This document shows, one piece after another, positions 10,001 to 64,000 of a DNA stretch of 64,000 bases. The notes beneath the pieces were generated by a model that did no database searches, was not told the DNA's origin, and saw only the letters and a program-made list of their open reading frames with translations. Positions within the stretch are counted from its first letter, which is position 1. The number at the start of each line of letters is the position of its first letter. This DNA comes from Leucocoprinus leucothites (taxonomy: Eukaryota > Basidiomycota > Agaricomycetes > Agaricales > Agaricaceae): the NCBI GenBank assembly GCA_013368445.1, contig JAACJO010000053.1:1-64000 (forward strand), read 5' to 3'. Position numbers and translations under genes: made by a program.

Positions 10001-10441
10001 TGGCTTTGCGCTTGCTGCGAGTGCATCGAAAGCTCCTACGAAATCTCCCAGTTCGTCTGGTTTGGGTTCAAGAACATCAACCGTCGCGAAATCGCCGAAT
10101 TCATCGTCTACCGGGATGGTCGGAGGCGCGGCAGCTCTTGAAGCAGCTACCTGGCCCTTTTGGTGTGTCTCAATATCGTCAAGCGTAGCAGAAAGTCCCT
10201 GCTTCTCAGCGCCGAGGGCATTCCACCGCTTTTGCCATAGCGAGTCGTCAAAGGCTAGCGCCGAGGTTGCATGCGAACAGCGCGCATATGCAGGGAAGTC
10301 ATGGACGGGGAGATGTGAGAGGATAATGAGATGGAGGTCAGATGGTAAACGACCGACAAGATTTGTGGGAGTGATGAGGTGTTTCTGAGATTTGTGGCCA
10401 GGCTGGAGGCGGACTGGTTCGAGAGCTTTAAACTTGTGCAT
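7038..10441 (-). CDS. F-box protein with Sec10-like body (Rcy1/Pof6 family)
   Basis: Rcy1/Pof6 proteins act in endosome recycling and vesicle delivery and recruit Skp1 through the F-box. The start at 10441 gives MHKFKALEPVRLQPGHK. The F-box follows at about residues 30-75: LPSDLHLIILSHLPVHDFPA, then DSLWQKRWNALG. Acidic DEFGDF repeats come next, then a long helical Sec10-like region: PMDEFMSQILEAISEHGSRA, then GEYITSLLERAREVSTAMFL, VNMDEYLDEEVEYLKLVFET, AGYPGHYGHRVRDTIEELF and FFELVHIGDMIQSMVQVYFD. The last exon ends NLSFKEDCVIC before TGA at 7038-7040. About a dozen introns of 50-60 bp interrupt it, for example near 9490-9540, 9292-9340, 9061-9106, 8896-8959 and 8145-8185. No break is visible. 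I recognise the family by architecture and did not do a search. Confidence 0.82.
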
Positions 10442-10506
10442 GGTAGAAAACAAACATGGTTGTACATTAACAATTTATTTACACTTGATTGTGATGGCAT
10501 TCGAAA

Positions 10507-31740: not shown

Positions 31741-32401
31741 TGTTATCGTGACACCGGCCCGGTCCTAAGCTGGCGCGATAAGTATCAAGTTGATCTTATC
31801 AAAGGGGACTCCTTCTCGGTAAGCGACAAAGTCGTTTACTAAGTCAGAGTTATAATACGGCGATTATAGAGTTAAGACTTTAGTAATTGAGATCTTAGGG
31901 CTTAAGTTCAATTCGACTTTGTATAGATAAAGGCTCGTATTGAGTCTCCACCTAACCAAGTAGAAACGATGTTTCTCCTTGGTAGATGTCAATGACTTAT
32001 ATATGATACAAGTCTGTATCTATTATTAACTAGGGCTAAGGGCTTCTAATGAAAGAAGAGAAGCATACAGCTTCCTTAACGCTAATTAAACTATAAGACC
32101 TGATCTGTCAAAGAAGCTTTAGAAGTTCTTCTAAAGAAGTTCTTCTTTGATCATCTGATTGATCACAAGGTAAGTCCAAATATAGCGCAGCTATATTTAA
32201 CAATCACATGTCATCAAAATACAAACAAAACCAAACAAGTCATAACAAGTTATAACCAGACAAAGTAAATGAGTCAAAACAAATGAGAAAATATAATCAC
32301 AAATAAGAGGAAAACATAATTGCGGTATTACTTAAGTAAAGCTAATATCGACTTCGTATTATAGATGGAACAAATGCTAGATATAATCAATATACATAAC
32401 A
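31741..32401 (-). repeat. 3' LTR of element I
   Basis: 661 bp, TGTTATGTATATTG to GTCACGATAACA on the minus strand. The last ~50 bp are strikingly GC-rich (accgggccggtgtcacg) in an AT-rich region. Confidence 0.92.
31996..32005 (-). promoter_or_regulatory. TATA box in element I LTR
   Basis: CATATATAAG on the minus strand lies about 26-35 nt upstream of ATCGTTTCTACTT (31970-31958), the sequence complementary to the primer-binding site. This places the likely RNA start at the self-priming sequence. Confidence 0.6.
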
Positions 32402-32451: not shown

Positions 32452-33801
32452 CTAATTTAAATTACCTTCACCATCTATGTTGAAGTTGGCTTCATCATCG
32501 TAATGAGATTCGTAATTGCCATCTTCGTATGGGGGTGTAAGGGGGCGTTCTCCTTCATAGATGTGAGAAGTTTGACCGTGATGGGGACGTCCACTTGGAC
32601 TGCGTCCTCGATGGTTTGGATGGGAGGAACGGACTGAGGTCTGGAGACGACCATACTGTCTTCCTTGTGGTGCGGGTTTACAACCTCGTCGCAGCGTAAA
32701 AGTAGGGTTGTAGGTTGGGCTGAGGGAGGTGGTGTTAACGGCTGTGGATGTTGGATTATGTTGTTCGGATCGAAGTCTGATGGCATCGGTGATGGGGGTG
32801 CCATGATTGCCGGTTGGTACACCGGACTGTTGGGGCTGTATTCTGGCAGATCCAGAGATGGACTGCAGAGCAAGAGCCTTGGCGGCATTGACTCCTTTGG
32901 TAATTGAAAGTGCTGCCAGGGCGACTGGGGGTAGATCCCGTTGAGCAATTCCTTTATAAGGATTTCGGGAACAATACTTGGTGAAATGGCCAGGGGCAAA
33001 AGTGTCGCACCAGGTGCAATGATATCCCAGGCAAAGCGTCTTGATATGACCCATTCTGTGACATATGTCGCAGGTTCGACTAGTATGTCCAGGGCAAGTC
33101 ACATCTCGATTGGTATTTCGAGGAGGCTTGTTAGTAGGTGTTGGAGGGGGTGTACTCAGTAATATGGCATTGTGTGTAGCCACATCATGACGTTGTTGAG
33201 GTTTGACACTAGGTGGGGAAGTTTTTCCCTCATCATCAGCTGAGGCATGCTCAGAATTCTGTGCACATCGCTCTGGAGCTTGTTGACGCTTGAGTGTAGT
33301 GAAGTAATCTCTGTCCGGGTTGGTGCGTTGGATGCGTTGGACAATGTTCTGAGTATAAGGACCCCTAGGGATATGGCATGCCAGGTTACTAAGATGGAAG
33401 TCCATTTCTTCCTGGAGACGCTTGTATTCACTTCTTGCAGAAGCAAGAGCATCAATCCAATTCCCGATGTTGTAGACATATGAAGTGAGTCTAGGATTGC
33501 TGCCGTAGGCAGACAGAAAGTCAACAGCTGTCTGTTCTCGAAGAAATGCTCATTGTAGGGTGGCATTCTCTTTATAGGGTGAAGAGTTTTCACCGCTAGT
33601 GTCTCTGCCTGCACTATCTCTGGCAGGGGATTTGGTGCCTTGTTCTTGCGATGAGGCAAGACCAGGACTTTCTTTGACCTTGTTCGCATCGTCAATGGTG
33701 TTGGTCAGTATAGTAGGAGGGGTAATAGGTGAGGGTGATTCGCAAATAATAGTTCTAAAGACTGGTACTGTTGGTTGTTCACTGACTTCTGAAGTAGTCA
33801 T
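32452..33801 (-). pseudogene. ORF3 of element I: tandem CCHC zinc-knuckle protein (one TGA)
   Basis: ATG at 33801 lies 15 nt after the pol stop and in the pol frame. The frame runs 450 codons to 32452 with a single TGA at 33550-33552. The N-terminal part is Ser/Thr/Pro-rich (MTTSEVSEQPTVPVFRTI), followed by helical NWIDALASARSEYKRLQEE. The zinc region is C-x2-C-x3-G-H-x4-C directly followed by C-x2-C-x4-P-G-H-x4-C (about 33080-32970). The C-terminal part is basic, then acidic and aromatic. It is a homolog of element II ORF3. Nucleic-acid binding is inferred from the knuckles; its role in the element's life cycle is unknown. Confidence 0.75.
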
Positions 33802-33816
33802 TGAAGCTGGGGAATG

Positions 33817-36800
33817 TTAAGAGAGATTGTGCTGGCTTTTATACTCTTGAATTATTTCTTTTGAATTTTCAAGATTTAACTCTGGTTCCCATGAGTCTTC
33901 AGTAGGTCCGTATCCTTTCCAACGAATCAGGTATTCTATTTTTGTTCCAGAACATAGTCTGCGGGTTCTATGATTTAGGACTGCTTCGACTTCGTATTGT
34001 TCTTCTCCTGAGACTAGAACAGGTGGTGGTTTAGGGTTGTGTTTACCATAAATGTCATTCTCAGTTACTGGCATGAGAAGTGAAGCATGGAACTTGTTGT
34101 GAATCTTCCATTTTTGTGGTAGTTTGAGTTTGTAGTTGACTGGAGAGGTTTTTCTAATAATAGTAAATGGACCTTCTCTTCTTTGATTAAGCTTCTTAGA
34201 AGCATAGGGTAAAGGGAGATTTCGGTTATCTAACCAAACTCGGTCTCCTACTTTGAATGGTGTCCATGGTTGGTTCTTTCTTTGAGCCATCATGAGACGT
34301 GTTTGTTCATGTGCCTCTAAAGCTGCTTCTCAGACTTGTTCCAAGAATAGAGACTTCTCATTGATAGAAGGTGTGTCTGTCTCTATGTCTGAGATAAACA
34401 CTTGTGGGTTATATCCTAGGATTAATTCGTATGGTGAGTGTTTTCTTCCAGAATGGGGTTTCGTATTGTGTACGAATTCAATCATTGGAAGTGCTCGTTT
34501 CCATATGGTTGGGTTTTGTGATGTGTAAACTGCTAAATAGAACTCAATTTCTTGGTTGTACCTTTCAGTAGTTCCATCTGTCTGTGGATGATATGCTGTA
34601 GACAGGGCTGGTGTAATATTGAGTTTTTCGTATAGTTTTTGCATTGATTTAGCAGCAAATCGTGGATCTCGATCTGAGATTATTTTGTTGGGTGTTCCAT
34701 ATTTCGAAAATACTTTGTCAATAAGAATTTCAGCAATGCCATCAGCATTTACTGTCTTCTTTGTTGGAGTTAGGATTATCCCTTTTGTAAGTCCATGGTC
34801 CACTATGGACAATATACAATCATATCCATCATCAGGTGGTAGTTCTGTGATAAGATCCATGGATATTTGGGAAAAGGGCCTTGTGGAAGAAGGGCCTTTA
34901 ATCGGTTGCATTGGTGGTTTAACCGGATGACGGTTGATTTTGTACTGTTGACAAATAGGGCATCCTTTCACGTAGTTCTGAACATATGTGTTCATTCCAG
35001 GCCAGTAAACTAATTTAGATAGTTTACGGAACGTTTTGGCTGTTCCTGGGTGTCCTGATGTCTCGTGATCATGTACACATTGTAGAAGTCTTCTTTTTAG
35101 TTTGGCATCTTCAGGTATCACATGTCTTCCCTGATATTTATAAATGCCATCCTCTTCTGTGAATCTTTCAGATGGGTTGATCTTCTCTTGTTTATTTTTA
35201 ATTTCTTCTTTAATTTCCTCAGAAAGGAAATTAATGAATTTTTCTGATGGTATCACAACTAGATCTTCGTTATCCTTTCCATCTGGGACTAGGTCTGGTC
35301 TTCTACTCAATGCATCAGCAAGAGTATTTTTGTTGCCAGCCAAGTGCTTTATGGAGTAATGGAAGCGCGTCATGTATAGCATCCATCTCGCTTGTCTTCG
35401 ATTTAATTGTTGTGGTTCTCGCCATCTGGTGAGATTCTCATGATCAGACCATATGATGATAGGGTGTGCTGATCCTTCGAGGTAGTGTCGCCATTCCTTT
35501 AGTGCTCTAATAATAGCAAGGAATTCTTGGTCGGACACATGATAGTTTTGTTCCGCAGGGTTGAGGGTTTGTGAATAATAAGCCACAGGGTGCTTATCTC
35601 CATTTGAATCTCTTTGGAGTAGTACTGCACCGGTAGCAAATGCGGAAGTATCGCATTCGATTTCGAACGGCTTTGATTCATCAACTATTTGAAGTATAGG
35701 TTGCTTAAGGAATTGTTCCTTGAGCTTCTCAAAGCTTTTCTGTGCTTCTGGGTTCCATTCGAATTTTGTTGTTTTACGAAGTAATGCATTAAGTGGTTGT
35801 GCGATAGCTGAGAAGTTGTGAATGAATTTGCGATAGAAGTTGCAAAATCCAATAAATTGTCGGATATTTCGGACAGACTTGGGTACAGGCCAATCCTGTA
35901 TTCCCTTAAGATTAATGGGGTCCATCTCAATAGAGTCAGGAGTTATGATAACTCTGAGGTATTCTAGGCATTGCTTCTCAAATTCGCATTTCTCAGTTTT
36001 TAAATACAACTCGTTCTGTTGTAGAATCTTCAAGACTTGTTTAGTAAGTTTTTCGAGTTGTTCCTTTGTTTTCGCATGGATAAGGATGTCATCCATGTAA
36101 ATAATAACTCCGCCTTTCTCTGTAAGGTCTTTAAAGATGTGATCCATCATGGATTGGAAGGTAGCAGGGGAATTTGTCATTCCAAAGAACATGACTGTGG
36201 GTTCATATAACCCATTTGGAGTGTGGAATGCCGCTTTCCATTCATGTCCTTCATGGATTTGGACATTATTATATCCTAGTTGGACATCTAACTTGGTAAA
36301 CCAATTAGATCCTTTGAGTTTATCCATGATTCATGATATGCTCGGTATTGGGTGAGCATTCTTTATCGTATTCTTGTTAAGGAATCGATAATCTTGGCAT
36401 GGACATAAGTCTCCTCCTTTCTTTCCTATAAAGAAGAAAGAAGAGGCCATTGGTGATTTGGATTTCCGAATATATCCTTTTCGTAGATTTTCGGAAATAA
36501 ACTTGTCGAGTTCAGTTCTTTCCTGAGGTGTCAGGTGATAAACTGGCATTCATTTGGGTTCAAATTCAGGTATAGTCTCGATTTTGTGATCCCAAGGACG
36601 TCTGGGTGGTAATTTCTCAGATTCGTCTTTGTTGAAGACTTTGAGAAACTGATGAAATTTCTTTGGTACGGCTTTCACAGGGTCTGATTCCCTTTTTGGT
36701 TTAGTAGCCGAGTTGTGAAGTTGTTGTGATGTGTTAGATTTCACATTGATTTCATAATACAACTGATTGATAGAATCAGTTTTCGCTTTGGTTAATTTGA

Positions 36801-37227
36801 TTGTATGAGAATTTTCATCTCACCAACATAATGATAGTTTCTGCCAATCAATGTCGGGATTGAATCTCTTTAACCATGTGATTCCTAAGAATAGTTGGTT
36901 TGATCCAAGTTTGACTATTCTTGGTGAGATCGTCATAATTTTGTTGTTCACTTCTATTTTTAATTTTGTATAGTGAGTACAACTTCCTGATAGGTTTTGT
37001 GTTCCATCAGCATTACGGATTTTGATTGCCTTTTTCATTTTGAATTTCAGCAAGTTGTAGGTATCGACTAGTTGTGGGTCAATAAATTCTCCACTAGCTC
37101 CTGAGTCGAGTAGTGCTTGTAGGTTGTGTTTTGCTCTAGTTGTATGGAGCAATATTGGTACATGTATTGTTAATCCTTTGTTTGATTGAAGATCGATGAT
37201 GTCTATCTGATCTTCATGAGTACTCAA
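33817..37227 (-). pseudogene. Pol of element I: protease, RT, RNase H, integrase, chromodomain
   Basis: In frame from 37227: protease LLDSGASGEF (about 37110), RT with FTKLDVQLGYNNVQI and IIYMDDILIH (about 36085), RNase H with IIWSDHENLT and NTLADALSRRPD, integrase zinc finger H-x-H...GCPICQQYK (about 34950), catalytic MDLITELPPD, IISDRDPRF and AYHPQTDGTTERYNQ, chromodomain KIEYLIRWKGYGPTEDSWEP (about 33930). Stops lie at 36820-36822, 36550-36552, 36331-36333 and 34330-34332; all are TGA. Otherwise the frame is continuous. It would make a standard chromovirus Pol if the TGA codons were CGA, which is the likely ancestral state. Confidence 0.9.
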
Positions 37228-39376
37228 AAATTTTCATTTGAGTATTCTTGAAATGGGTCGTCTTCATCGCTAGCTTGTTCTATTTCGTAAACCATGGCGT
37301 CTGGATCTTTCCTTTTAGGCTTGAAAGGTCTATGATTCCCTTGTTTCGGCTTGGACTGGGACTTCTGCGTCTGCTTCAATCCCATGTTTGTCTTTCCTCT
37401 TGACTTAAACCAAACCTTCCTTGCTGGACAAGATTTAGTGAAATGTCCTTTCTTGTGGCAGAAGAAGCATTCTCCTCTCTTGAGTGCAATTCTTTGTTTG
37501 TCGGTGAGAACATTATTGATGATGTGGGAGTATAGTGAACCATAGACATCTCTGTCTGTGTTGCTTGGTCCTTCATTGTACGTTTGGTTGATGTCTTCTC
37601 CTTCACTCTCCTCTTCTTCAGGATTATCATCATCCTCTGCACCAAGTTCATATATACCTCCATTGTCTGCTTCCCGATCATCTTTGATTGATAATCGGTA
37701 TATTCCTCTTGATATTCTGTCGATATCCATGTCCCACTCAGATCGTCTGGGTCTAGATAGGGGTTGACTATAGACGTCATTATATCGTGGTTGGGATCCG
37801 TGTTGTCTACTATTCTTTTTGGTCTTTCTTGGTCTATTTGAAGATCCTGGATTAGAATTTCCAATGCAGTATCTCCTTTGCTCTTGGACAACTTTGTATG
37901 CCTGCCTTGCAGCAGTTTTCCATTCTGCGAGGGTTTGGGGGTCAGCTCGGATTGCTTCGAATCTGACATCATTGTCGAGTCCTTCGGCAAAGTAGGATCG
38001 GAGAGAAGTGCTGTCAGTAAGTCCTGCACGTGAGGCGAGGACAGAAAAATTGGCGATGTATTCTTCGATGTATTTGTTTTGTTGTCTATAATAGCGGAGC
38101 TCTCTCTCAGCCTCAAAGCTCTGTTGTGTTGGAGTGAATGATTGCTCGAGCACATTCTTGAACTGGTCAAAGGTGTGTGGGATGTGTCCTGCTTGGGTAG
38201 CTGCAGCTGCTCAACTAAGTCTGTAATCCTGTTGCCATAACTTGGCAGCTCCATCAAGTAATCCAAGGGTGTAGTTGATTCTTGATTGGTCATCTGTGAC
38301 ACCATATGAGTCGAAGTAGAGTTTGACTTCTGCCATCCATGGTCTGTAGTAGCTTGGGTTGCCATCAAACCTGTTGGGTTTTGGGTACTTAAGCTGGAAT
38401 CCTGCTTGAGGTTGTGCCATTGGGTTTGGCGGGGGGTTTGGATTAGGATTTGGTGGTCCTCCTTGTGGATTTGGTGGTGGCAGTGTGGGGCTTCTCCGAT
38501 TTGAAGAACCTCCTGTGTTGGTGACAACTGCCTTTGCTTTCCCTTTTGTTTGGGTGTTAGTGGTACGGTGATGGTGGTACTGGCTGTAGTAATGTTGGGA
38601 TTGGTTGTTAGTAAGGTACTGGTACTGGCAATACCGGTGGGGGAATTGGTAAAGCTAAAGGGGATAGGGTTCGTAATGGGACTGAGGAACCTTGGGCTAT
38701 GTCCAAGGGCTGGGCTTGAGGAGTAAGAAGGGGGTCTATCGAGTCTGGGTTTCTCTGGGGATTTAAGTTTGAGATTGTCAATTGCCCTTGTGAGTGCTTC
38801 TGCTTCCTCTTCTGTTCGATTTCCTTCAGATTCCTGTTGGCTTCTTTCTCCACTATCTGTTCCTTCTTCGTCTTCTTCTTCATCTTCTTCATCAAATTCA
38901 GATTCTTCTGAACTTGGAGTGTTAACTCTGGGCTCTGAATGATTGTCTTGTGGGATGTCTTCAGTTCTTGGGGTGATGTCAAGGACTGGTTCTGGTTCGA
39001 TGGTCCTGCTAGATTCTGCGGGGGTTTCTGGAAACGGGGTTTGTCTTCTTCCTGCTTTTTCAGTGTACTGTTCTTGGGTAACATCTCGAAGTTCTTCAAG
39101 ACCAGCTCCTTTTTCGATTTGTTGTTTGACAGTTCTGTGAAGTTGCTTGTGACCAAGTTCTGCATATTCGGCTTCAAGGACTCCTTCTTGTTCTTTCTTG
39201 ATTGGGATGTAGGCAACTTTCCCTTCATGTTCTTTGATGTAGTAGAATCTTCCTGATCCTTTACTTCTGTAGAACCTTGTTCTTCGGGTTTCACTGTAGT
39301 AGGTACTATAGGATTCCTCTGGGAATTCTCTTCTTGCGAAGATTTCGACCTGTCTTGCAAACTCTGCTGGGTCCAT
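37224..39376 (-). pseudogene. Gag of element I
   Basis: ATG at 39376 gives MDPAEFARQVEIFARREF, a long N-terminal extension rich in Glu/Ser, then after a frameshift near 38490 the capsid core MAQPQAGFQLKYPKPNRFDG, LGLLDGAAKLWQQDYRL, QSFEAERELRYYRQQNKYIE and the zinc knuckle CFFCHKKGHFTKSC (about 37465). A TGA at 38211-38213 breaks it. The gag stop TGA at 37224-37226 directly follows a possible -1 slippery heptamer. Gag is unusually long (about 715 codons). Confidence 0.85.
37227..37233 (-). promoter_or_regulatory. Possible -1 frameshift site between gag and pol
   Basis: On the minus strand the gag-frame sequence A-AAT-TTT precedes TGA. It fits the X-XXY-YYZ pattern, and pol continues in the -1 frame (TTG AGT ACT CAT). 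A pol ATG is not present nearby. I did not find the downstream RNA structure by eye. Confidence 0.4.
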
Positions 39377-39942
39377 TGTGGACTATGTTTATGGGTGCCT
39401 ATAGAGACACCTGGTATGGTCTTAAATGGTAAATTGTCCTTAAGACAATTATCACACTTGCAGTTTGATTCTGCCGTGGTTGGAAAATTAGTTTATAGTC
39501 GCTATGGACTCACCTTTATAGTCCCTAGGACTGTGTATTTATAGTCTCTTAAGACTTTCAACAGATAAACTGTCTTCCAAGTATTTACCCTCGGGTCTGG
39601 TATTCTTCAGAGATATGCCAAACTTTCTGGCAAATTTCTCTCTTCCGAGTATCTACCCTCAGGTCTGGTATCTTATTTGAGATTCAGGTACAATGACCTT
39701 AGCTCTCACAAGCCTCCAAATGTTTTAAGAGCGTGGGTATTCGCTCAGATCAATAAGAGTGATCCTCAACTAATCCACTAGTTGGCAATGTGTGTCGACC
39801 CTCTCTTTGTTGTATGCACAATAGTTTTGGGACAGCTTGTGCTATAACCGCGATAACCCAAATCAACAGTGTTTGCAACATTGTTGGGTTACTGGGCAAA
39901 GTAACGGCTCTGTGCTAACAGAGAAGGATCGTTTCTACTTAA
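39377..39942 (-). other. Untranslated leader of element I
   Basis: 566 bp between gag ATG and the 5' LTR remnant. A diverged copy lies at 18960-19432 in R2. No ORF of note. Confidence 0.75.
39928..39940 (-). promoter_or_regulatory. Primer-binding site of element I (self-priming type)
   Basis: AAGTAGAAACGAT on the minus strand starts 2 nt after the LTR end. It is perfectly complementary to ATCGTTTCTACTT in the LTR at 31958-31970, just downstream of the TATA box. This is the arrangement of Tf1/sushi self-primed elements. Confidence 0.7.
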
Positions 39943-40053
39943 TGTTATCATGATGCCGGCCCGGTCCTAAGCTGGCACGATAAGTATCGAGTTGATAAGA
40001 TCAACTCGATACTTATCGTGCCAGCTTAGGACCGGGCCGGCATCATGATAACA
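39943..40053. repeat. 111-bp palindrome replacing the 5' LTR of element I
   Basis: Left half (39943-39996) and right half (40000-40053) are perfect reverse complements by eye around a 3-bp centre. Each is the GC-rich 54-bp end of the LTR. The outer edge is followed by the TSD TGTGA, so the palindrome is the true element terminus. Confidence 0.9.
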
Positions 40054-40058
40054 TGTGA

Positions 40059-40653
40059 ATCCATTTGGCCAGGGAAAAGACAGTCATTGTTAGGCATGTG
40101 GATCTACAATAATGATGCATGGAAAACTTCATGTACACTATGTCACTGCAAATTTTGAGATAACTCAATTTTGTAGGAGTTATTGCTGAAGTCTCATATA
40201 ATGGGGTAAGGGCCAATGAATTTGGTGATGAGTCTGCAGGTGAGTCCACAAGGAAACAAGATGTTTCTCATGGAGATGTAGACTAGGTCACCTGTTCAGA
40301 AGGGTGAGGGGATTTGCTTGCAGTTGGCTGTTCTAACCTCCTTGATTCAGTGGGTGAGTATGCTATCATGTGCTTGAATAATAGCATTTTTCATGTTCTG
40401 AGCAAAGGTGCAGATGCCATGGTATTCAGTTGTTGAAGGAGAATTCCAGATAAAGAAGCAAGGCATGCAGCCATGATTGAGGAAGAAGGGAGCATACCCA
40501 GTGACTTCTGATTGAGCAGAGTTGACAGTGAACTCTATGGCTGGTAACTTAGAGACCCAGTTTTTTTGATCTTGCAAGATGCATTGCCTTAGCATCTGAA
40601 TGATCATTCAGTTGGCTCACTTGGTTGAGCTATTGGATTTAGGGTGATATGTG
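40059..40653 (-). pseudogene. Element III integrase, C-terminal catalytic part
   Basis: The minus strand reads TYHPKSNSSTK (the usual HPQTDG block), then DQKNWVSKLPAIEFTVNSAQ (about 40540) and SEVTGYAPFFLNHGCMP. It joins across L4 to KLQMSS at 51955: removing L4 gives KLQMSSTYHPKSN without a gap. Confidence 0.8.
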
Positions 40654-40729
40654 CTGGTGAAGGGAATGTGGGATAGGTGAGTGCGGATGTGTTTGTGAGC
40701 ACGACAGTGTCTGTCTGTCGTTGGTTCTG

Positions 40730-41426
40730 TGTTAATATTTACAGTCAGAGCACCTAGTAACGTCACATGTCACAACATGTGATTGGGTTACGTAAGACAG
40801 CGGCTAACTGGTCTTTAACCTACTTCAATTAATAAGCTTGAGTATTCTCGAAAGCCTAGTAAGAGAAGGCCAAGAAGACTTGAGGTAAGTCTAAGGTAGT
40901 GCGAGGTTCGAGACAACAACAATGATACAAGTGAATTCAAGGCAGGGCAAGTAAACACAAGTAGTCCGGGAAACAAAGGAAAGATTAAACTTGCGTTTAA
41001 TCTTCCAAATACAAGTCTTTAAATACTAACTAGACGAAACGATATCAAACTATGAAACTACAACTACAAGTCCGAAAATCACTATCATGATTCTGATAAA
41101 TACGTATCTGTCCGCCGATGTAACAGCTATCATAGTTAGATATCTAATAGTTCAAATCCAAACACAATGTCCATGAAACCATCATTGTCTGTTAATCAGT
41201 CCTGTTAATCCATAGCAATCAAACAGCGAAACCGTTCCTCCTGATCCTTCTAATAACATCCATCCAATTATACTCGTCCCAATCAACATCGAATCGTTCT
41301 TCTTCCACATCAAACTTTCCAACGTATTCTTCCCAATCTAGAACCGCAGTCTCAGTCCTGGTGGCTGTGTCGGCGTCTAGGATGATTAAGTCACAATGAG
41401 CGTCAATCAGATCGACGTTTATAACA
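40730..41426 (-). repeat. 3' LTR of element II (partly protein-coding)
   Basis: TGTTATAAACGTCG to GTAAATATTAACA on the minus strand. Bases 41426-41219 carry the last ~70 codons of ORF3. TATA-like TATTTAAA is at 41025-41018, followed about 26 nt later by AAGTTTAATCTT. Confidence 0.95.
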
Positions 41427-42856
41427 TTATCCCTTTTGTAGGACTTGATGTCCTCATCAACATCCTTATCCAAATTGGACTCAGTAATCTCCATAGGGCT
41501 CTCCTGTGATGTTGGCAATTGTGACATTGTCGTAGGGGTCGTCATACTCTTCTCCATAAGTGTCCCTATGATCATAACCTTCATCTGAGACTCATCAAGG
41601 TCTGAGGTGGCATTGGGTACGAGGTCGACGGTGATATGTCTGGTGTCAGGAGTCAGGCGAGTTGGAGAACGCAGTGGTAGAACTCGTGTTCTACTTGCGT
41701 CTGTTGAGTCGAGTCCCACGCGGAGGAAGACTTCGTTTTTCCTTTGTTGTTGACATCGAACAGGTTGGATCGGGCAGACTTCTTGAGTTGGAGTGCTTCG
41801 GGAAGAAGGTAAGGGGAGGTCTCCGGGTCTAAATACTTGGGATGGATGTTTGCGGGTAAGGATAGGTTTGAGCCATCGTTGTTCTTGATCAGAGACTCCA
41901 CTGATGAATGAGGAGAGGGGAAAGAGGTGTAATTGTGGGAACTTTGCGACGGCTCGTCGTTGTAAGACCTGTGCGAATTCTCGGGTGGTACATGCTCATT
42001 GTTTGTTGAGGAAGCAGTATCTTCCGAGATGTCCAGGGGCAGAGTGTCGGCAGTAGTGGCAGGTATAATGTTCGCATTGGTCCACGAAATGACCATTGAC
42101 CCTACAGATTGCGCAGTATTCTCTCTGTGTAGTACTTTTGGGGGTGGGAATAGAGTCGGGTTTCGTTTGTGGCAATCATAGTCTGCGATCATTTGTTCCA
42201 GTCTGTTCTGTTCTCTGAGGGGCATCAGGTCGATCCACATCAGGAAGTTCATTGGGAACTCCATTGGTTCCATCATCAGGTCCATCCGGGTACTGGAGAG
42301 TAGGAAGTTCAGATCCTTGTCGAGTCTCGCTAGGCTCACTTGGATCTGGAGCCTTTGGGAAAGCGTGAAGGGCTTGTTCAGCCACTGACACGATTTTCCT
42401 AATGACAGGCGATTTGACAGTTCGGCAAAGTGAGTTAACGTGACACTTGAAGAAATATGAGTGGTGGAGCAACGTGTGTTTAAGAAATAAGAGAGTAGTC
42501 CAGTCCTCCCTGAATAGGTCGAATTGGACAGTGTCGAGTGAATCTTTGCAGAGAGTGGCCCTAGCTTCAGTGAAGGGGGCATCGTAGAGTTGGAAGGTTC
42601 GAATGGCTCTAGTGGGGTCGGTGTAGGTTTCCTCTGGTGGGGAATCTTCCGAAATTGAGGAAGGGGACTGTGTGATGGTCGTGACTGGAGGGGCAATGAC
42701 ATAGCTTGTTCCTGTTCCAGGCGAGGTATATGTTGGAGGGCATGGAGATAAATGACCAGAGTTAGACATGATGTCTGATTTGCGAAGTGGTACTAGGGGT
42801 GTGTTGGATTGGTAGGTGTATGGTTCTGGGATGGTGTTTGGAATGAGATGTTGCAT
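41219..42856 (-). pseudogene. ORF3 of element II: tandem CCHC protein ending inside the LTR
   Basis: ATG at 42856 lies 12 nt after the pol stop and in the pol frame. The frame runs 546 codons to TGA at 41219 with two internal TGAs (42176-42178 and just after the zinc region near 42002). The zinc region (about 42105-42010) is C-x2-C-x3-G-H-x4-C then C-x2-C-x4-P-G-H-x4-C, matching ORF3 of element I residue for residue in spacing. The end crosses the PPT (SYKRDN) and enters the LTR at 41426, giving an acidic, Trp-rich tail (FDVDWDEYNWMDVIRRIRRN). The role is unknown; nucleic-acid binding is inferred. Confidence 0.72.
41427..41437 (-). promoter_or_regulatory. Polypurine tract of element II
   Basis: AAAAGGGATAA on the minus strand abuts the 3' LTR and also codes for part of ORF3. 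Confidence 0.8.
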
Positions 42857-45136
42857 GATTCTGGTTTTTCAACGAAGTTTGTGATGCTGTTTATATGTGT
42901 CTAGCATCTCCTGTGCATTCTTTAGGGTGTCTGCAGGCTGCCATGTCCGTTCTGAATTAGGGTATCCTTTCCAATGTATCAGATATTCGATCTTTCCGCG
43001 GCGTGTTTTGCGATGGCAAACAACGTCTTCGACTTCCCATTCTTCTTCTCCTTCTATTAGATCAGGTGGTGGGTTCTCGAAATGATTTCCGTATTCATCA
43101 TTCTCAGTTACTGGCCATAGGAGTCCTACGTGGAAGCGGGGATGAACTTTCCATGATTTGGGTAATTTTAGTTCATAGTTCACAGGTCCAAGCTTCTTTG
43201 TGATTTCGAAAGGTCCTACGCATTTCCCTGATAGTTTCCTTGATGGTGCTCGAATAGGGAGGTTGCGTGAATCCAGCCAGACCTTTTGTCCTACTTCTAG
43301 TTTTGGAAGTGGACCTTTGATACATTCGGTCATAGTTTGTCTTGCTTTCTCATGCGAATCTTGTGCAGCAATGCGGATATTCTTTATCCAGTCGATGCGG
43401 TCTTCAGTCACTGGATTATTCGTTGGTTCTTGATCAGTTGGGAAAGCTTTGAGGGGGTGGCCGTACATCAGTTCAAAGGGTGTTTGTGATCGATTTGAAT
43501 GGGTTCTGGAGTTGTGTGCGAATTCGACGAGGGGTAGTTTCTTTGGCCAGTTAAGTGCATTCTTGGAGCAGTAAGCAGAAAGGTACATTTCGATTTCTTG
43601 GTTGAAGCATTCAGTGGTACCGTCGGATTGAGGGTGGTATGCAGTAGATTGTGCGTGTTCTATTCCTAGCTTCTTGAACAGAGCTTGGACAGATTTAGCA
43701 ACAAATCTAGGGTCTCGATCTGAGATAATTTTGTCTGGGGTTCCAAAACGTGAGAAGATGTTTTTAATTAACAGATCAGAGATGTGATCTGCAGTGGCTT
43801 CTTTTCGTGTTGGTACTATAATTATCCCTTTTGTGAGTCCATGGTCCACTACGGACAAAATAGAGTCGAATCCATCGACTTCTGGAAGATTGGTGATGAG
43901 ATCTATAGCTATTTGTGCAAACAGTCGAAGAGAGTGTGGTCCTTTAATGGGTTGGAGTGGGGGCTTGAAAGGCCGTCTGTTGATCTTGTGTTGTTGACAG
44001 ATGGGGCATCCTTTCATGTAGTTCTTGACAAAAGCTCTCATTCCAGGCCATGTAACGTATTCTTCTAGTTTGCATATGGTTTCGGTTGTACCAGGGTGTC
44101 CTGCTGCTGGGGCATTGTGTACTCGTTGGAGTAAATGCTTCTTGAATGTGTTGTTGGCGGGGAGCATGAAACGTCCTTTTTCGTTGATGTGGGGTGAGCC
44201 ATTGGGTTTCGTTGGGAGTGATTCTTCGATTTCCGGATTGAGGATATCAACGTCTATTGCTGGGAAAGATGATGTATCAAACATATGGGCAGGAATGGCC
44301 GCTTGCAGTTTTTCCTCTTCTTTGGTGACGTGGTCGGGTCGGCGTGAGAGTGCATCAGCTGCGACATTTTTGATGCCGGCAATATGGCAAATCTTGACTT
44401 TATGGGCACTGATGAGGGCGGACCATCGAATTGTCCATCGGGATAACTTTGATGGTTTAGCCCAATGGATGATATTGTCATGATCTGTCCATACGACGGT
44501 TTCGTGTGGTGAGCCATCAATATAGTGTCGCCATTCTTGCAGTGCATGGATGATTGCTAGGAATTCTTGTTCGGAAGTGTGGTAACGTTTTTCGGTAGGG
44601 GAAAATCCTTTGAGTGGAAGAAACACAGGTGCATGATACCATTCAAATCCTTTTGAAGTAAAACTGCGCCTGATGCGTGATTTGAGGCATTGGTTTGTAT
44701 TTCAAAGGGTTTGGTCGGGTCAGGGGTTATAAGAACGGGTTCTTGTAGAAATTTCTTTTTGAGAGTGTCGAAAGATGATTGAGCTTCTGAATTCCATTGA
44801 AATGGTTGATTTTTGCGAAGGAGGGCGTTGAGAGGGCTGTGTAGTGGGCATAATTTCGTATGAATTTTCGGTAGAAGTTGCAAAAACCAATGAATTTGTG
44901 AATATCTCGTGGGTTCTTGGGTATTGGCCAATCTGCTATTCCTTTGAGTTTTATTGGGTCCATGTGTACTTCGTCCGGTGAAATTATGAATCCTAGGTAT
45001 GCCAATTTTTCTTTTTCGAAATCACATTTCTCTGCTTTGAGATAGAGATCATGTTTTCAGAAAATATCAAATACTTGGTGGGTGATTTCTCGTAGTTCCT
45101 GTTTTGTTTTTTGCGTGAATCAACACATCGTCCATA

Positions 45137-46729
45137 CAGTGGCTCAAAAAACTGTCCCAATGTTTTCGCATTTTGGACATATTTGCTAATACCAGGGCAG
45201 ATATATGGCCTAGCATCCTGAAAATATTCACACAGGTACCTTGACATATTGGGCGCATATATTCCCATGATCACATGACCTTGTCCATCAATGAATTAAT
45301 AATGAATTATCGAAAATATCTACTCATTGGGACAGTTTTTTGACCCTCTGTTATCTACCTACTCAATACTTTGTATGACCTCCTCTTGCCCTGATAACTG
45401 CCTCAATCCTTCTGGGCATGCTTTCTATCAGCCTTTGGCACCTTTCTGCTGGAATCTTATTCCACTCCTCTACTAGCCTCTCCCACAATTCAAATACTCC
45501 CTTGGGTGGTCTTTCATATGCCTTCAGCTGGTCCTTCAGGTAGGTCCAGAGGTGTTCAATGGGATTTAGGTCAGGGGATTGTGCAGGCCATGGTAGAACT
45601 TGAATGTTGTTGTCCACAAACCATTGTTGTCCCAGTTTTGAGGTGTGTTTTGGGTCATTATCCTGCTGGAATATCCTCTCCTCCTCCTCCATCTCCAACT
45701 TTTCAAAGCTTTCCACCACCCCATTGTCCAAAATCTCGCAGTATTGCACTGCATCCATATTCCCTTGAACCTCTATCAGCTTTCCTACCCCATTCCACCC
45801 CATACACCCCCACACCATCATGTTACCACCTCCTCCATGTTTGACAGTAGGGAGAGTGGTCCTATCTGACAGTGGTTCCCCCCTCTCCTTCCAGGTATAC
45901 ACCTTTCCATCTGACCCAATCCTGTTGATCTTTGTTTCATCTGTCCACAACACCCTCTTCCAGTCCTCCACTGTCCAATTCCTATGTTCATGTGCAAAGT
46001 CAAGGCATTCCTCACGATGTCGCTTTTTGAGTAGAGGTCGTTTGATCTTGGTTACAGAGCGAAATCCATTATCCTGAAGGGTATTTCTGACAGTTTGGGG
46101 TGTGACAGGGTCAGACAGAGTAGAGTTAATGAAAGTTGTAGCCTGGACAGCATTGTCTAGCTTTCCAGAGGTTATTTGGTGAATTATTGCTTTTTTATCA
46201 TGAGGAGAAAGCTTGGAAGGACGTCCTCCCTTGTTGTTTTCCTTGTCCCCATCAACTTCTTTCTTGATCCTCCCAACGATAGACTTTCCTAGACCAGTTT
46301 TATGTTCAATCTGGCGCAAGGAATAGCCATCTTTGAGAAGAGAAGTGACTTGGGAGTATTGGGTAGAGGAGATAGCTTTCATGATGTAGTGGCAGGAAGA
46401 AAGACAGTTGTAGCCATCTCAACATGTCAACCAAGGTCACATGATCTTGTTTATTACTCCCACGCCTGCCCTGATGCTCCCCTGGCATGTTACAAGGTAG
46501 ATACTGGGAGGCTGACAGGGGGTCAAAAAACTGTCCCAATGAGTAGATATTTTTGATAATTCATTATTAATTCATTGATGGACAAGGTCATGTGATCATG
46601 GGAATATATGCGCCCAATATGTCAAGGTACCTGTGTGAATATTTTCAGGATGCTAGGCCATATATCTGCCCTGGTATTAGCAAATATGTCCAAAATGCGA
46701 AAACATTGGGACAGTTTTTTGAGCCACTG
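45137..46729 (-). mobile_element. Tc1-type transposon, copy 2 (potentially active)
   Basis: 1593 bp flanked by TA (45135-45136 and 46730-46731). Terminal inverted repeats of 210 bp (45137-45346, 46520-46729) look nearly perfect. The empty site matches related RT sequence at 63944-63960. The intact transposase and clean ends suggest recent activity. Confidence 0.95.
45363..46382 (-). CDS. Tc1/mariner transposase, DD34E, 339 aa, intact
   Basis: It cuts and pastes its element at TA sites. The start at 46382 gives MKAISSTQYSQVTSLLKDG. Two helix-turn-helix segments follow (YSLRQIEHKTGLGKSIVG; GGRPSKLSPHDKKAI). Catalytic blocks are VLWTDETKIN (D1), IFQQDNDPKHT (D2) and SPDLNPIEHLW (E). By count 34 residues lie between D2 and E, the Tc1 spacing. 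GGGGNMMVWGCM is the usual Gly-rich strand. It ends RARGGHTKY before TGA. No stop or frameshift is present, in contrast to copy 1. No intron is needed. Confidence 0.93.
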   Translation of the reverse strand: MKAISSTQYSQVTSLLKDGYSLRQIEHKTGLGKSIVGRIKKEVDGDKENNKGGRPSKLSPHDKKAIIHQITSGKLDNAVQATTFINSTLSDPVTPQTVRNTLQDNGFRSVTKIKRPLLKKRHREECLDFAHEHRNWTVEDWKRVLWTDETKINRIGSDGKVYTWKERGEPLSDRTTLPTVKHGGGGNMMVWGCMGWNGVGKLIEVQGNMDAVQYCEILDNGVVESFEKLEMEEEERIFQQDNDPKHTSKLGQQWFVDNNIQVLPWPAQSPDLNPIEHLWTYLKDQLKAYERPPKGVFELWERLVEEWNKIPAERCQRLIESMPRRIEAVIRARGGHTKY

Positions 46730-48021
46730 TATATATGATAACTTATTTTGATGAATGAGAGGAGCGAGGATGGTGTCCATCATGTTTTGGAATGTTGCTG
46801 GCTATTGCACATTCAAAGAACATAACAGTGGTTTGAATAACCTTTATGTGTACGGAAGGCTCCTTTCCATTGATCTCCGTCAAAATGCGAATGTTGTTGT
46901 ATCCTAATCATACGTTGAGTGCTGTGAAATATTTCAATCCTTGAAGTCGGTTGAGTATTGATTGGATACTGGATTGGATAGCATTTTTGATGGTATGTTC
47001 ATTGAGGTATCAATAGTCTTGACATGGTCTCAAAGATCCGTTTTTCTTGGATACGAAGAAGAAAGGAGAAGCCATCGGTGACTTCAACGGTCGAATGTAT
47101 CCTTTTTGTAGATTTTCTTCTAAGAATTTATTGAGTTCAAGGGTTTCTCCATATGATAACTTGTATGAGGGAAAAGCTTTGGGTTGAAAAGATGGTTTCA
47201 TCTTGATTTTGTGGTCATAGGTTCGAGATGGTGGGAATCATTCGCTTTTCTTTTCACTGAAGAGGTTGAGGAATTCGTGAAGATAATTGGGTATGATTTT
47301 TGTGGGATCGGTTTCTTTCTTTTCTCCGTGTTGTTGGGCGAATGTCTGAGAGTGTGATGTTTTGGCATTGAATTCGATGAAGTCTTTGTTTGACAGGTTG
47401 AATTCATCCAGTCCGATTGTGTCGGGAAATGCTGAATCTAGTAAGGTAGTGAATTCTTGGTTCTCAAGGTAGGATCGCCAAGAAAGGGTCTTCTTGGTCC
47501 AATCTATGTCAGGGTTGTGTTTTGAAAACCATGGGATTCCATAGATTATTCGTGGTCATCCTAGGTTTGCGACAATCACATTGGTTTTGATTCGTTTTCC
47601 ATAAACGGTAGTTTCGATTACTACATAATCGGTGATGGATGTGTTTTCTACAACTGATCTGTCTCCATTCCTGATGGCGAGTGGTTTTGGAAGTTTTCTT
47701 CTTGGAAGTTTCCATTTGTTTGCGAGATCTTGGTCAATAAGATCGGTTCCTGCTCCTGAATCAAGGAGTGCTAAGGTATCCACGGTTCTCTTGGGTAGGT
47801 GCACTTTGAGGGGAAGATAAAGAGTGTTGGATTGCATGGGGGTAAGGGAAACTTCATTTAAATAAGAGAGTCCAGTTGGGGTCTTTGGTCTGGGTAACTA
47901 TCGTTCTGTAGTCCATTTGAGAAATAAATAGGTCCATTTGAATCTGGGGTTGATGATCGAGAGGATAAATAAGAGGGTGTGCACTGTCCGGTAGAGGGTT
48001 TTGACGAATTAGACATGGATG

Positions 48022-50349: not shown

Positions 50350-51046
50350 TGTTAAGATTTACAGTCAGAGCGCCTAGTAACGTCACATGTCACAACACGT
50401 GATTGGGTTATGTAAGACAGTGGCTAACTGGTCTTTAACCTACTTCAATTAATAAGCTTGAGTATTCTCGAAAGCCTAGTAAGAGAAGGCCAAGAAGACT
50501 TGAGGTAAGTCTAAGGTAGCGCGAGGTTCGAGACAACAACAATGATACAAGTGAATTCAAGGCAGGGCAAGTAAACACAAGTAGTCCAGGAAACAAAGGA
50601 AAGATTAAACTTGCGTTTAATCTTCCAAATACAAGTCTTTAAATACTAACTAGATGAAACAATATCGAACTATGAAACTACAACTACAAGTCCGAAAATC
50701 ACTATCATGATTCTGATAAATACGTATCTGTCCGCCGATGTAACAGCTATCATAGTTAGATATCTAATAGTTCAAATCCAAACACAATGTCCATGAAACC
50801 ATCATTGTCTGTTAATCAGTCCTGTTAATCCATAGCAATCAAACAGCGAAACCGTTCCTCCTGATCCTTCTAATAACATCCATCCAATTATACTCGTCCC
50901 AATCAACATCGAATCGTTCTTCTTCCACATCAAACTTTCCAACGTATTCTTCCCAATCTAGAACCGCAGTCTCGGTCCTGGTGGCTGTGTCGGCGTCTAG
51001 GATGATTAAGTCACAATGAGCATCAATCAGATCGACGTTTATAACA
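50350..51046 (-). repeat. 5' LTR of element II
   Basis: 697 bp, the same length as the 3' LTR. Aligning the two by eye shows 12 differences, 11 of them CpG in one copy and TpG or CpA in the other. Confidence 0.95.
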
Positions 51047-51950
51047 TTCTGACCCAAGTAGATAGCTTGATTATTGATTGTTTTTAATGAGATTTTAATT
51101 GAAATGATAACTCAGCGCTAGTGCGACGATATGAGATGTTGCTGAGGAGTGAAACTATGATGAGGGCGGCCGGTTTGAGTGAGAACGACGTTTAAGAAGC
51201 TCCAACTTAGAGCTAAACTGAGTTAGAGAGATGGGTGTCAATTTCACTCAAGAAAAAGGAGATACATTGCAGTATTTAAAGTTACGGTTCTATGACTATC
51301 TACAATGCTGCAGGTGACTATAGAGAGCAGGAAGGAGCAGTTTATGAGACGATTTGTCGAGATTTTGTAAGGGAAAGGGAATTCGAAGGAATATTAGTGG
51401 TGGAAAAGTAGGCAGAGAGAAGGGTCCATGTGGTTGTTTAGACCCACACTATTAGACTAGACGATGAAGCGGAGCAGTAGCGATTGTACCGGAGTATGAG
51501 CGAGTATTTTATCGAGATTTTAGGATGAAGGAGGGAGGAGGAACAATAAAAAAAGATAAAATATAATTTAAATGTTCGGACTTCTGTCAGTTGGATGACA
51601 GGTCCTAACTCGGTTGCGTTGAAGCGGGGATGCCAAGTGCGAAATGTATGTAGCGAGTAGTAAAAGGAAAGTGTAGAATGGAGAGAGGAAAGGGGCATCT
51701 GGAATTGAGAGAGGAAATGGGAAAGCTGAGGGGGATAGTGGTGGTAAGCGGTGGCTACTGGGCGAGGACTGTGCAGGGGCATCTTGATACAGTAGTCGGC
51801 TATGATTGATGATTGGTGCGTTGCCAGGGTAGTAGGGTGTCGGTTAGTACACAGAGAGTTGTCGAAGAAGGAGGGGACTTAATCAGTAGTAGAGAGAGGA
51901 TGCATGACGGCAGTGATATGACGTCACATGACATCCGATCTCTACACTGG

Positions 51951-63166: not shown

Positions 63167-64000
63167 TTACCTCCCATTCAAATGTGCAATAGTCCAGCAA
63201 TATTTCAGAACATGATTGTTAAGATTTACAGTCAGAGTGCCTAGTAACATCATGTGTCACAACACATGATTGGGTTATGTAAGACAGCAGCTAACTGGTC
63301 TTTAACCTACTTCAATTAATGAGCTTGAGTATTCTCAAAAGCCCAGTAAGAGAAGGCCAAGAAGACTTGTGGTAAGTCTAAGGTAGTGCAAGGTTTGAGA
63401 CAACAACAATGATACAAGTGAATTCAAGTCAGGGCAAGTAAACACAAGTAGTCTGGGAAACAAAGGACAGATTAAACTTGTGTTTAATCTTCCTAATACA
63501 AGGTCCTTAAATACTAACTAACCAAAACAGTATCAAACTACAACTACAAGTCTGATATCACAATCACAATACTGATAAATACTAATCTATCTGCTGATGT
63601 AACAGCTATCATAGTTAGATATCATAGTGTTCAAATCCAAATGTGATGTCCATGAAACTATCATTGTCTGTTCATCAGTCTGTTAGTCCATTCCTATCAA
63701 ACAGTGAAACTATTCCTCCTGATCCTAGTAATGACATTCTCCCAATTGTACTCATCCCAATCAATATCAAACCTTTCTTCCTTGATATCAAATTTCCCAA
63801 TGTACTCCTCCCACTCTAATAAAGCTGCTTCAGACTGGGTAGCTGTGTCAGTATCTAGAATAATCAAGTCACAGTGGGTGTCAATCAAGTCAATATTTAT
63901 AACAATGATGGACACCATCCTTGCTCCCCTCATCCATCAAAATAAGGTCATCATATACATGGATGATGTGTTGATTCATGTGAAAACAAACAAGAACTAC
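63167..64000 (+). pseudogene. Reverse transcriptase fragment of an element II relative
   Basis: FKMCNSPAIFQNM, then after the solo LTR MDTILAPLIHQNKVIIYMDD and VLIHVKTNKN to the window end. It is colinear with the RT of element II around the Tc1 site and CpG-poor. It continues outside the window. Confidence 0.75.
63217..63904 (-). repeat. Solo LTR of family II with open C-terminal ORF3 frame
   Basis: 688 bp flanked by ATGAT (63212-63216 and 63905-63909). Bases 63904-63697 keep the ORF3 tail open (IKEERFDIDWDEYNWENVIT) although many bases differ from the element II LTR. CpG is strongly reduced. Confidence 0.92.

What the first reader, a model, noticed from the sequence alone, without database searches (positions are those of the whole stretch)
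32452..42856. Third ORF after pol in two distinct chromovirus families, with conserved tandem zinc knuckles
Elements I and II differ in LTR, leader and gag, yet both have an ORF of 450-546 codons directly after pol (33801-32452 and 42856-41219). Both encode C-x2-C-x3-G-H-x4-C followed at once by C-x2-C-x4-P-G-H-x4-C, with an A-P-G-H core. Typical chromoviruses end at the integrase chromodomain, and nucleocapsid-type knuckles normally sit in gag. An accessory zinc-knuckle protein kept across families suggests a real function such as RNA chaperoning, targeting or host-defence evasion; the function is inference.
Basis: partly seen in the sequence, partly recalled or inferred. Interest (0 to 1): 0.88.

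Follow-up and report, generated by a model that had tools for sequence, protein, structure and literature searches.

The report
Overlapping gene pair after retrotransposon pol
In two families of fungal jumping genes, the stretch after the enzyme gene carries a conserved zinc-knuckle protein and, read one base further along over almost its whole length, what looks like a second protein that natural selection also preserves.

Summary
The tandem knuckles are real, in frame and conserved. Element I's is cut by a stop at codon 84. Element II's 546 "codons" hold two stops, then a 16-nt deletion throws the frame. Elsewhere in the same 47 Mb genome ORF3 is 449 codons in family I (open in 20 of 30 copies read) and 463 in family II (0 of 30 stop-free). 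The two are homologues; a genome search with the knuckles found them only in these two families.

The main result is new. The +1 frame over ORF3 is itself open for 440 codons (24 of 30 family I copies), beyond codon-shuffle expectation, with an invariant start (31 of 31 and 28 of 28 rows). Non-CpG changes avoid being nonsynonymous in both frames in family I divergence, family I polymorphism and, less firmly, family II. Family II singletons and frame +2 show no such constraint. In family II the +1 frame runs through the PPT into the 3' LTR, and past the ORF3 stop it alone is constrained.

I conclude a dual-coding accessory module: ORF3 (probably RNA-binding) plus ORF4. No expression data; function is inferred. 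Extra ORFs in fungal gypsy elements are in print; ten literature searches showed no such overlap.

The parts
32452..33801 (-). ORF3 of element I (449 codons plus stop; this copy broken by a stop at codon 84)
32971..33072 (-). tandem zinc knuckles of ORF3-I (CCHC, then C-x2-C-x6-H-x4-C)
32475..33689 (-). ORF4 of element I, +1 frame over ORF3; 404 codons from its ATG in other copies; this copy has two stops in it
   Evidence: open 440 codons in 24 of 30 copies; ATG in 31 of 31 rows; constraint
33817..33819 (-). pol stop TAA, in frame with ORF3, 15 nt before the ORF3 ATG (29 of 31 rows); a conserved AG ends 5 nt before that ATG
31790..32401 (-). 3' LTR of element I as far as the repeats show it, preceded by a PPT-like GGAAAGGGATAA
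41481..42856 (-). ORF3 of element II (463 codons in other copies; here stops at 227 and 287 and a 16-nt deletion near 41634, so the low end is mapped by alignment to another copy)
42014..42115 (-). tandem zinc knuckles of ORF3-II
41219..42702 (-). ORF4 of element II, +1 frame over ORF3, continuing through the PPT and about 70 codons into the 3' LTR (stop at 41219-41221); this copy is interrupted
42869..42871 (-). pol stop TGA, in frame with ORF3, 12 nt before its ATG
40730..41428 (-). 3' LTR of element II (98.3% identical to the 5' LTR)
50350..51048 (-). 5' LTR of element II
42869..44701 (-). pol 3' part of element II (RNase H, integrase, SH3, chromodomain)
33817..36330 (-). pol of element I as two adjoining open frames (RT, RNase H, integrase; SH3 and chromodomain part ends at 33817)

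Best explanation
The interval between pol and the polypurine tract is a dual-coding accessory module, probably present before families I and II split. ORF3 (449-463 aa) is in the pol frame, starting 12-15 nt after the pol stop: a long N-terminal part with a helical segment, two zinc knuckles, an Arg-rich stretch and an acidic tail. ORF4 (404 aa in I, about 499 aa in II) is read one base further along over nearly all of ORF3; in II it runs on through the PPT into U3 of the 3' LTR, as retroviral nef and sag do (recalled). Supported by computation: both frames long and open, both under purifying selection, both starts conserved, ORF3-I and ORF3-II homologous. Inferred: ORF3 starts at the first AUG of an mRNA that begins near it (spliced at the conserved AG just upstream) or by reinitiation after pol. 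Ribosomes that skip the ORF3 AUG (T at -3 in all 31 family I rows) start ORF4 at its AUG (A or G at -3). ORF3 then binds the element's RNA through the knuckles and Arg-rich stretch and acts on export, packaging or silencing of that RNA; ORF4 is a partner or regulator.
For: Open +1 frame: family I 440 codons in 24 of 30 copies, while frame +2 has 28-31 stops. Stops against codon shuffles, in two little-decayed copies: 2 versus means 7.3-7.6 (L013, family I; 7 and 19 of 5000 shuffles as low), 1 versus 6.4-8.7 (L047, family II; 8 and 0 of 5000); the pol ends of the same copies are normal. Substitutions outside CpG sites: family I, L078 versus 29 copies, nonsynonymous in both frames 11 of 62 against 43% expected, p=2.9e-5; ORF4 given an ORF3 change 0.22, p=3e-6. 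Polymorphism among the 29 copies (37 sites): ORF4 0.10 (p=7e-5), ORF3 0.14 (p=0.002). Family II sites shared by at least 2 copies (93), four reference copies: ORF4 0.34-0.45 (p 4e-4 to 0.006), ORF3 0.33-0.42 (p 3e-4 to 0.003). Family II singletons, the neutral control: 1.03 and 1.02; both-frame changes shared 11 to 45 against singleton 67 to 99, Fisher p=0.006. The II tail beyond the ORF3 stop: ORF4-frame N 5, S 18 in shared changes versus N 42, S 17 in singletons, p=6e-5. Starts: ORF3 ATG 31 of 31 and 28 of 28 rows, ORF4 ATG 31 of 31 and 28 of 28; an ATG between them in 1 of 31 family I rows. ORF3-I versus ORF3-II E=3.2e-7, and a global alignment that pairs the acidic tails. ORF4-I versus ORF4-II E=0.007 over 172 colinear columns, better than frame +2 (0.11) or cross-frame (0.45), but see against. 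Model of an ORF3-I piece: residues 11-80 in blocks of mean pLDDT 68-86, helical.
Against: No transcript or protein evidence. The ORF4 I/II match has a hhalign probability of only 5.5%, so their homology is not established. Family II at stricter cuts (shared by at least 3 or 4) gives ORF4 0.37-0.58, p from 0.03 to 0.19, and ORF3 0.34-0.51, p from 0.014 to 0.06, by reference copy. Downstream of the ORF4 ATG only, ORF3 constraint is borderline (family I 0.43, p=0.055; family II 0.46, p=0.052). The older copy L077 points the same way but is not significant (0.59, p=0.33; 0.53, p=0.13). In family II 15 of 28 rows have some ATG before the ORF4 ATG (7 at +87, 7 at +113, 5 at +147), so leaky scanning is less clean there, though at +87 12 rows read ACG, which CpG decay turns into ATG. 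One pol control set also gave a low +1 value (0.59, on 3 changes), and frame +2 of element II pol is low in stops in the second shuffle test (27 against 34-36, 99-135 of 3000). The ORF4 model is low confidence (mean pLDDT 42), as are the knuckles of the ORF3 model. ORF3 misses every Pfam cut-off. Two families in one genome only; no ORF3 relative found in the protein collection.
Confidence: 0.62

Rival explanations
1. Only ORF3 is a gene; the +1 frame is open by composition (Pro/Ser/Thr-rich protein, few T on the coding strand), and the substitution pattern is an accident of relaxed selection.
For: The +1 expectation is low (about 5-9 stops), so an open frame is less improbable than in pol. The capsid part of gag of element I also shows a +1 deficit, 2 against 7.1-7.7 expected, so an effect shared by gag and ORF3 is conceivable.
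Against: Shuffles keep codon use and still give 0-19 of 5000 as low. The +1 frame is more constrained than ORF3 itself in family I divergence (0.22 versus 0.41). The II tail, outside ORF3, shows mostly synonymous change in the +1 frame, p=6e-5 against singletons. Relaxed selection would not produce that.
Confidence: 0.12
2. ORF4 is the functional gene and the knuckle-bearing ORF3 frame is the younger or lesser one, lightly constrained.
For: Naive ORF3 dN/dS 0.54-0.69; marginal N/S for ORF3 0.94 against 0.33 for ORF4 in family I divergence.
Against: The Cys/His pattern of ORF3 is conserved between I and II, E=3.2e-7, far more clearly than ORF4, E=0.007. ORF3 conditional constraint is significant in family I divergence, family I polymorphism and family II sites shared by at least 2 copies.
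Confidence: 0.1
3. ORF3 is made as a pol-ORF3 fusion by readthrough of the pol stop, and ORF4 by a +1 frameshift, as an extension of pol rather than as free proteins.
For: The pol stop is in frame with ORF3 in both families, 4-5 codons before its ATG: 15 nt in 29 of 31 family I rows, 12 nt in the 28 family II rows as projected on L047. Ty3 uses +1 shifting for gag-pol (recalled).
Against: Both ATGs are invariant in 31 and 28 rows. TAA-CAT and TGA-AAA are not strong readthrough contexts (recalled). In-frame placement in both has a 1 in 9 chance. L028, whose ORF3 and ORF4 are both open, has a 1-nt deletion between pol stop and ORF3 ATG, and L033 a 1-nt insertion.
Confidence: 0.2
4. Env-like gene in the usual env position.
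For: Position after pol; one lineage of bdelloid LTR elements has an env-like ORF3 (PMC5408684, abstract).
Against: Highest 19-residue hydropathy is 1.01-1.27 in all four proteins, with no transmembrane-like segment; zinc knuckles present.
Confidence: 0.02

Closest known systems
Additional ORF of unknown function in fungal Gypsy elements (Novikova et al. 2010, PMC2864245; passages and section 5 with the Figure 3 legend read; figure not held)
   Same: Fungal chromodomain Gypsy elements drawn with an extra ORF; the survey includes Agaricomycetes and basidiomycete clades such as MarY1, Laccy1 and Laccy2
   Different: The text I read names no position, zinc knuckle, selection or overlap for it; I could not tell which elements carry it or whether it is this gene
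CERV of Cer1, a C. elegans Gypsy/Ty3 element (PMC10309623; abstract, background section and passages read)
   Same: [quoted passage not shown] needed for nuclear export of genomic RNA
   Different: Five-exon spliced protein sharing gag peptides, potential leucine zipper; no tandem knuckles in what I read, and the alternative frame overlaps gag, not another accessory gene
Umbravirus ORF3/ORF4 (PMC13098196; abstract read)
   Same: Two proteins in embedded ORFs, one unstructured
   Different: Plant RNA viruses; movement proteins; sequences not compared here
+1 frame overlapping genes reached by leaky scanning in RNA viruses (PMC2832772; abstract and background read)
   Same: Proposed expression route; detection by modelling substitutions in two frames
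   Different: RNA viruses, not an LTR retrotransposon
Retroviral nef and MMTV sag (recalled)
   Same: Accessory frame that runs through the PPT into the 3' LTR, as ORF4 of family II does
   Different: No sequence relation claimed
Antisense additional ORFs between pol and 3' LTR in plant Retand elements (PMC11963269; passages read)
   Same: Conserved extra coding region between pol and 3' LTR with suspected nucleic-acid binding
   Different: Antisense, TRP28 domain, non-chromovirus

Membership tests
Chromovirus (Ty3/Gypsy with chromodomain integrase) | chromodomain after the integrase SH3 domain | tested here: met
   Element II: PF24626 E=4.8e-16 and PF00385 E=8.4e-15. Element I: PF24626 match at 34066-34248 and 53% identity to II over SH3-chromodomain; its chromodomain was not scanned on its own
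Chromovirus (Ty3/Gypsy with chromodomain integrase) | gag with capsid domain; RT, RNase H, integrase in that order | tested here: met
   Element I: Retrotrans_gag, RT, RNase H, integrase. Element II: Retrotrans_gag, RNase H and integrase; its RT is interrupted by an insertion and was not scanned
Pfam zinc knuckle (zf-CCHC and kin) | score above the curated cut-off | tested here: not met
   ORF3-I none; the ORF3-II knuckle segment reaches only CLIP1_ZNF 19.6 bits (cut-off 25) and zf-CCHC_2 13.1 (cut-off 27)
Retroviral nucleocapsid-type knuckle | at least one C-x2-C-x4-H-x4-C | tested here: met
   First knuckle fits; the second is C-x2-C-x6-H-x4-C and does not
Envelope gene | transmembrane segment | tested here: not met
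   maximum hydropathy 1.27 over 19 residues in four proteins
Overlapping gene pair (dual coding) | second frame open beyond expectation given the first | tested here: met
Overlapping gene pair (dual coding) | purifying selection in both frames | tested here: met
   weaker in family II at stricter cuts, not significant for L077
Overlapping gene pair (dual coding) | both products made | not testable with these tools
   no transcript, ribosome or protein data
CERV/Rev-like RNA export factor | needed for export of unspliced genomic RNA | not testable with these tools
   inference from knuckles, Arg-rich stretch and position only

The most novel reading that the evidence does not exclude
Two chromovirus families of an agaricomycete share a same-strand overlapping gene pair of about 400 or more codons downstream of pol, both genes under purifying selection, the second reached by leaky scanning and, in one family, extending through the PPT into the 3' LTR: a compact virus-like accessory region of a kind I found no report of for a fungal LTR retrotransposon.
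Probability: 0.72. Interest if true: 0.82.

Novelty: new variant of a known kind. Interest (0 to 1): 0.72.

Why it matters
Extra ORFs after pol in retrotransposons are often set aside as unexplained. Here the extra stretch seems to encode two proteins at once, each kept by selection, with a testable expression route and an extension across the LTR border. It would show that fungal LTR retrotransposons can carry virus-style overlapping accessory genes. It explains why a simple dN/dS test could wrongly dismiss such ORFs, and it gives a pair of proteins to test for RNA export, packaging or defence evasion.

Tried and rejected
Env-like protein: no transmembrane segment. Wider family: no ORF3 relative in the 5.8-billion-protein collection (7995 candidates scored, E<=0.01, 4 candidates, E<=1), while pol gave 2033 at E<=1e-10; the length filter and gene callers make this absence weak. 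IMG/VR scans with pol and ORF3: none. Pfam, PHROGs, NCBIfam: nothing above a cut-off for ORF3 or ORF4 where scanned; PDB sequences: three weak matches, two nucleocapsids and a Restin (CLIP) knuckle, E 0.075-0.83. Structure models are low confidence, so no fold search was made. Naive dN/dS set aside as misleading for an overlap. A third family with these knuckles in the genome: none seen, at single-sequence sensitivity. gag as an extra test of overlap: only a stop count was possible.

Limits of the controls: the 8 other chromovirus stretches were read in three forward frames only; one (L071) shows no frame of 90 codons at the pol position, and one (L074) holds a lone second-type knuckle match in an unrelated place; they are probably two or three families. 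The shuffle tests used copies chosen for being little decayed (L013, L047, L042).

Rows dropped: two of three near-identical C6 copies (L066, L067) were left out of the family II nucleotide alignment (28 of 30 used). L039, L049, L057, L058, L063 and L068 were left out of one protein alignment, and L009, L049, L057, L058, L063, L066, L067 and L068 of another. The family I nucleotide alignment has 31 rows (30 copies plus L078); the '29 copies' leave out L078 and the window copy. Two of 30 family I copies failed the pol filter. Sites at CpG in any row were excluded from the two-frame counts.
Full report
WHAT WAS CLAIMED AND WHAT IS THERE. The frames at 33801-32452 and 42856-41219 do encode the knuckles. 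Both window copies are damaged. The first has a stop at codon 84; the second has stops at 227 and 287, and a 16-nt deletion near 41634 throws the frame. The window lies in a held 47.0 Mb genome of 110 contigs, so other copies could be read. Searches there gave 114 matches to an ORF3-I piece (112 of 179 candidates scored) and 65 to an ORF3-II piece (65 of 65). I read 30 copies of each with flanks. ORF3-I is 449 codons and free of stops in 20 of 30; ORF3-II ends at codon 464 in 24 of 30 and is stop-free in 0 of 30. Family II therefore looks like an old, decayed set and family I a younger one; the pol frame of family I reaches 1138 codons in many of the copies listed.

ONE GENE IN TWO FAMILIES. 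ORF3-I and ORF3-II are homologues: hhalign probability 93%, E=3.2e-7 over 51 columns with the knuckles, blastp E=2e-6, and a global alignment that also pairs the acidic C-terminal tails. Pol of the two families is about 51% identical. Searching the genome with a II knuckle segment scored all 143 candidates: 55 are family II, and the 88 weaker ones fall by position (a sample compared by eye) in family I. Eight other chromovirus stretches downstream of the same SH3 domain had no tandem knuckles in the three forward frames (8 of 8); they are probably two or three families, and one of them has no clear pol end.

THE SECOND FRAME. The +1 frame over ORF3 is open for 440 codons in 24 of 30 family I copies; 17 of 30 have both frames open. 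Frame +2 has 28-31 stops. In family II the +1 frame opens at codon 22 and, in 2 of 30 copies, runs 529 codons, past the ORF3 stop, through the PPT and into the 3' LTR, whose bounds in the window are 40730-41428. Shuffling codon order or synonymous codons gives means of about 5-9 stops where 0-2 are seen: for the whole ORF3, 7 and 19 of 5000 shuffles are as low in family I (L013) and 8 and 0 of 5000 in family II (L047); the pol ends of the same copies are normal. In a second test the window's pol pieces were normal in the +1 frame, with one low value in frame +2 of element II (27 against 34-36, 99-135 of 3000).

SELECTION IN BOTH FRAMES. Each substitution was classed as synonymous or not in ORF3 and in the +1 frame, leaving out any site that is CpG in any row, and compared with random changes of the same kind in the same sequence. 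Family I, differences fixed between L078 and the 29 other copies (64): changes nonsynonymous in both frames are 11 of 62 against 43% expected (p=2.9e-5). Given a change in the ORF3 protein, the +1 frame is spared (0.22, p=3e-6); given a change in the +1 protein, ORF3 is spared (0.39-0.41, p about 0.02; 0.43, p=0.055 if only the part after the ORF4 ATG is used). Polymorphism among the 29 copies (37 sites): 0.10 (p=7e-5) and 0.14 (p=0.002). Family II, sites shared by at least 2 copies (93), over four reference copies: ORF4 0.34-0.45 (p 4e-4 to 0.006), ORF3 0.33-0.42 (p 3e-4 to 0.003). At stricter cuts (at least 3 or 4) ORF4 is 0.37-0.58 (p 0.03 to 0.19) and ORF3 0.34-0.51 (p 0.014 to 0.06). Family II singletons, which should be neutral, give 1.03 and 1.02. 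Pol gives 0.07-0.36 for its own frame in four of five sets and 1.14 in family II singletons; for the +1 frame it gives 0.59-1.38, the 0.59 resting on 3 changes. Frame +2 over ORF3 shows no constraint (2.4 and 5.7). In the II tail, beyond the ORF3 stop, shared changes are 5 nonsynonymous and 18 synonymous in the +1 frame against 42 and 17 in singletons (p=6e-5). A more decayed copy, L077, agrees in direction but not significantly. Naive ORF3 dN/dS is 0.54-0.69 (0.47-0.74 CpG-masked) beside 0.12-0.16 in pol, as expected when synonymous sites of one frame are constrained by another.

IS ORF4 SHARED BY DESCENT. ORF4-I and ORF4-II align over 172 colinear columns with E=0.007, better than frame +2 (0.11) or a cross-frame pairing (0.45), but with a hhalign probability of only 5.5%. 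Their same relative frame, position and start order fit a common origin; sequence alone does not establish it.

STARTS AND EXPRESSION. The ORF3 ATG is present in 31 of 31 and 28 of 28 rows, and the first ATG of the +1 frame (at +112 in I, +154 in II) in 31 of 31 and 28 of 28. The base at -3 is T for ORF3-I (poor), A in 27 of 28 for ORF3-II, A for ORF4-I and G for ORF4-II. Only 1 of 31 family I rows has another ATG between. In family II 15 of 28 rows do: 7 at +87, 7 at +113, 5 at +147; at +87 12 other rows read ACG, which CpG decay would turn into ATG. This fits leaky scanning well in family I and less well in II; the route is described for +1 overlapping genes of RNA viruses (PMC2832772, abstract and background read). 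How ribosomes reach ORF3 is open: the pol stop is in frame 15 nt upstream in 29 of 31 family I rows and 12 nt upstream in family II, and an AG ends 4-5 nt before the ATG in every row, so reinitiation, readthrough and splicing all remain. L028, with both frames open, has lost one base in the junction, which speaks against readthrough.

WHAT THE PROTEINS MAY DO. A shallow-alignment AlphaFold2 model of an ORF3-I piece has helices of fair confidence near its start and little else (mean pLDDT 48); ORF4-II is low throughout (42). ORF3 has an Arg/Lys-rich stretch and then an acidic tail in both families. None of the four proteins has a transmembrane-like segment. No library family reaches its cut-off for ORF3 or ORF4 where scanned. 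RNA binding by ORF3 is a reasonable inference from tandem knuckles plus basic stretch; what it does with RNA is not shown. [quoted passage not shown]).

NOVELTY. Novikova et al. 2010 mark an additional ORF with unknown function in some Gypsy elements of a fungal survey (PMC2864245; passages and section 5), so an extra ORF is not new. Passages of a second survey of fungal LTR elements (PMC3248453) mention no third ORF. Overlapping genes are well known in viruses. In ten searches of the paper library (listings only, apart from the papers named) I saw no report of a long same-strand overlap after pol in a fungal retrotransposon; most subscription papers are not in it. ORF3 found no relative in the protein collection although pol found 2033, some nearer to each family than the families are to each other. 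Filed as a new variant of a known kind.

Noticed in passing
37224-38654 and 37376-39382 (minus): The +1 frame over the capsid part of gag of element I is also short of stops: 2 against 7.1-7.7 in shuffles (4 and 8 of 3000 as low); gag of II is less clear (4 against 5.9-8.6; 533 and 77 of 3000). In many other copies gag is one frame of about 740 codons, so this may be a second overlap or a composition effect.
   Followed up: partly
45127-46739: A DNA transposon with about 250-bp inverted ends and a 351-codon frame that looks by eye like a Tc1/mariner transposase sits inside pol of element II, so this copy is dead.
   Followed up: no
ORF3 copies across G000: Stops in decayed copies are mostly TGA and recur at the same codons, as expected if CpG sites (CGA) decay to TGA; suggests methylated, silenced elements.
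   Followed up: partly
G000:C6:230694, 243507, 256318: Three family II copies with identical scores spaced about 12.8 kb apart: perhaps a tandem duplication of the locus.
   Followed up: no
G000:C21:211434 and 212959: Two family I ORF3 copies with the same score in opposite orientation 1.5 kb apart: perhaps an inverted duplication.
   Followed up: no
63217-63904: A third LTR of family II, 84% identical to that of element II, near the window's edge.
   Followed up: no
8819-10474: Host-like gene on the minus strand with an F-box match just above cut-off and a Sec10-like helical-bundle match.
   Followed up: no
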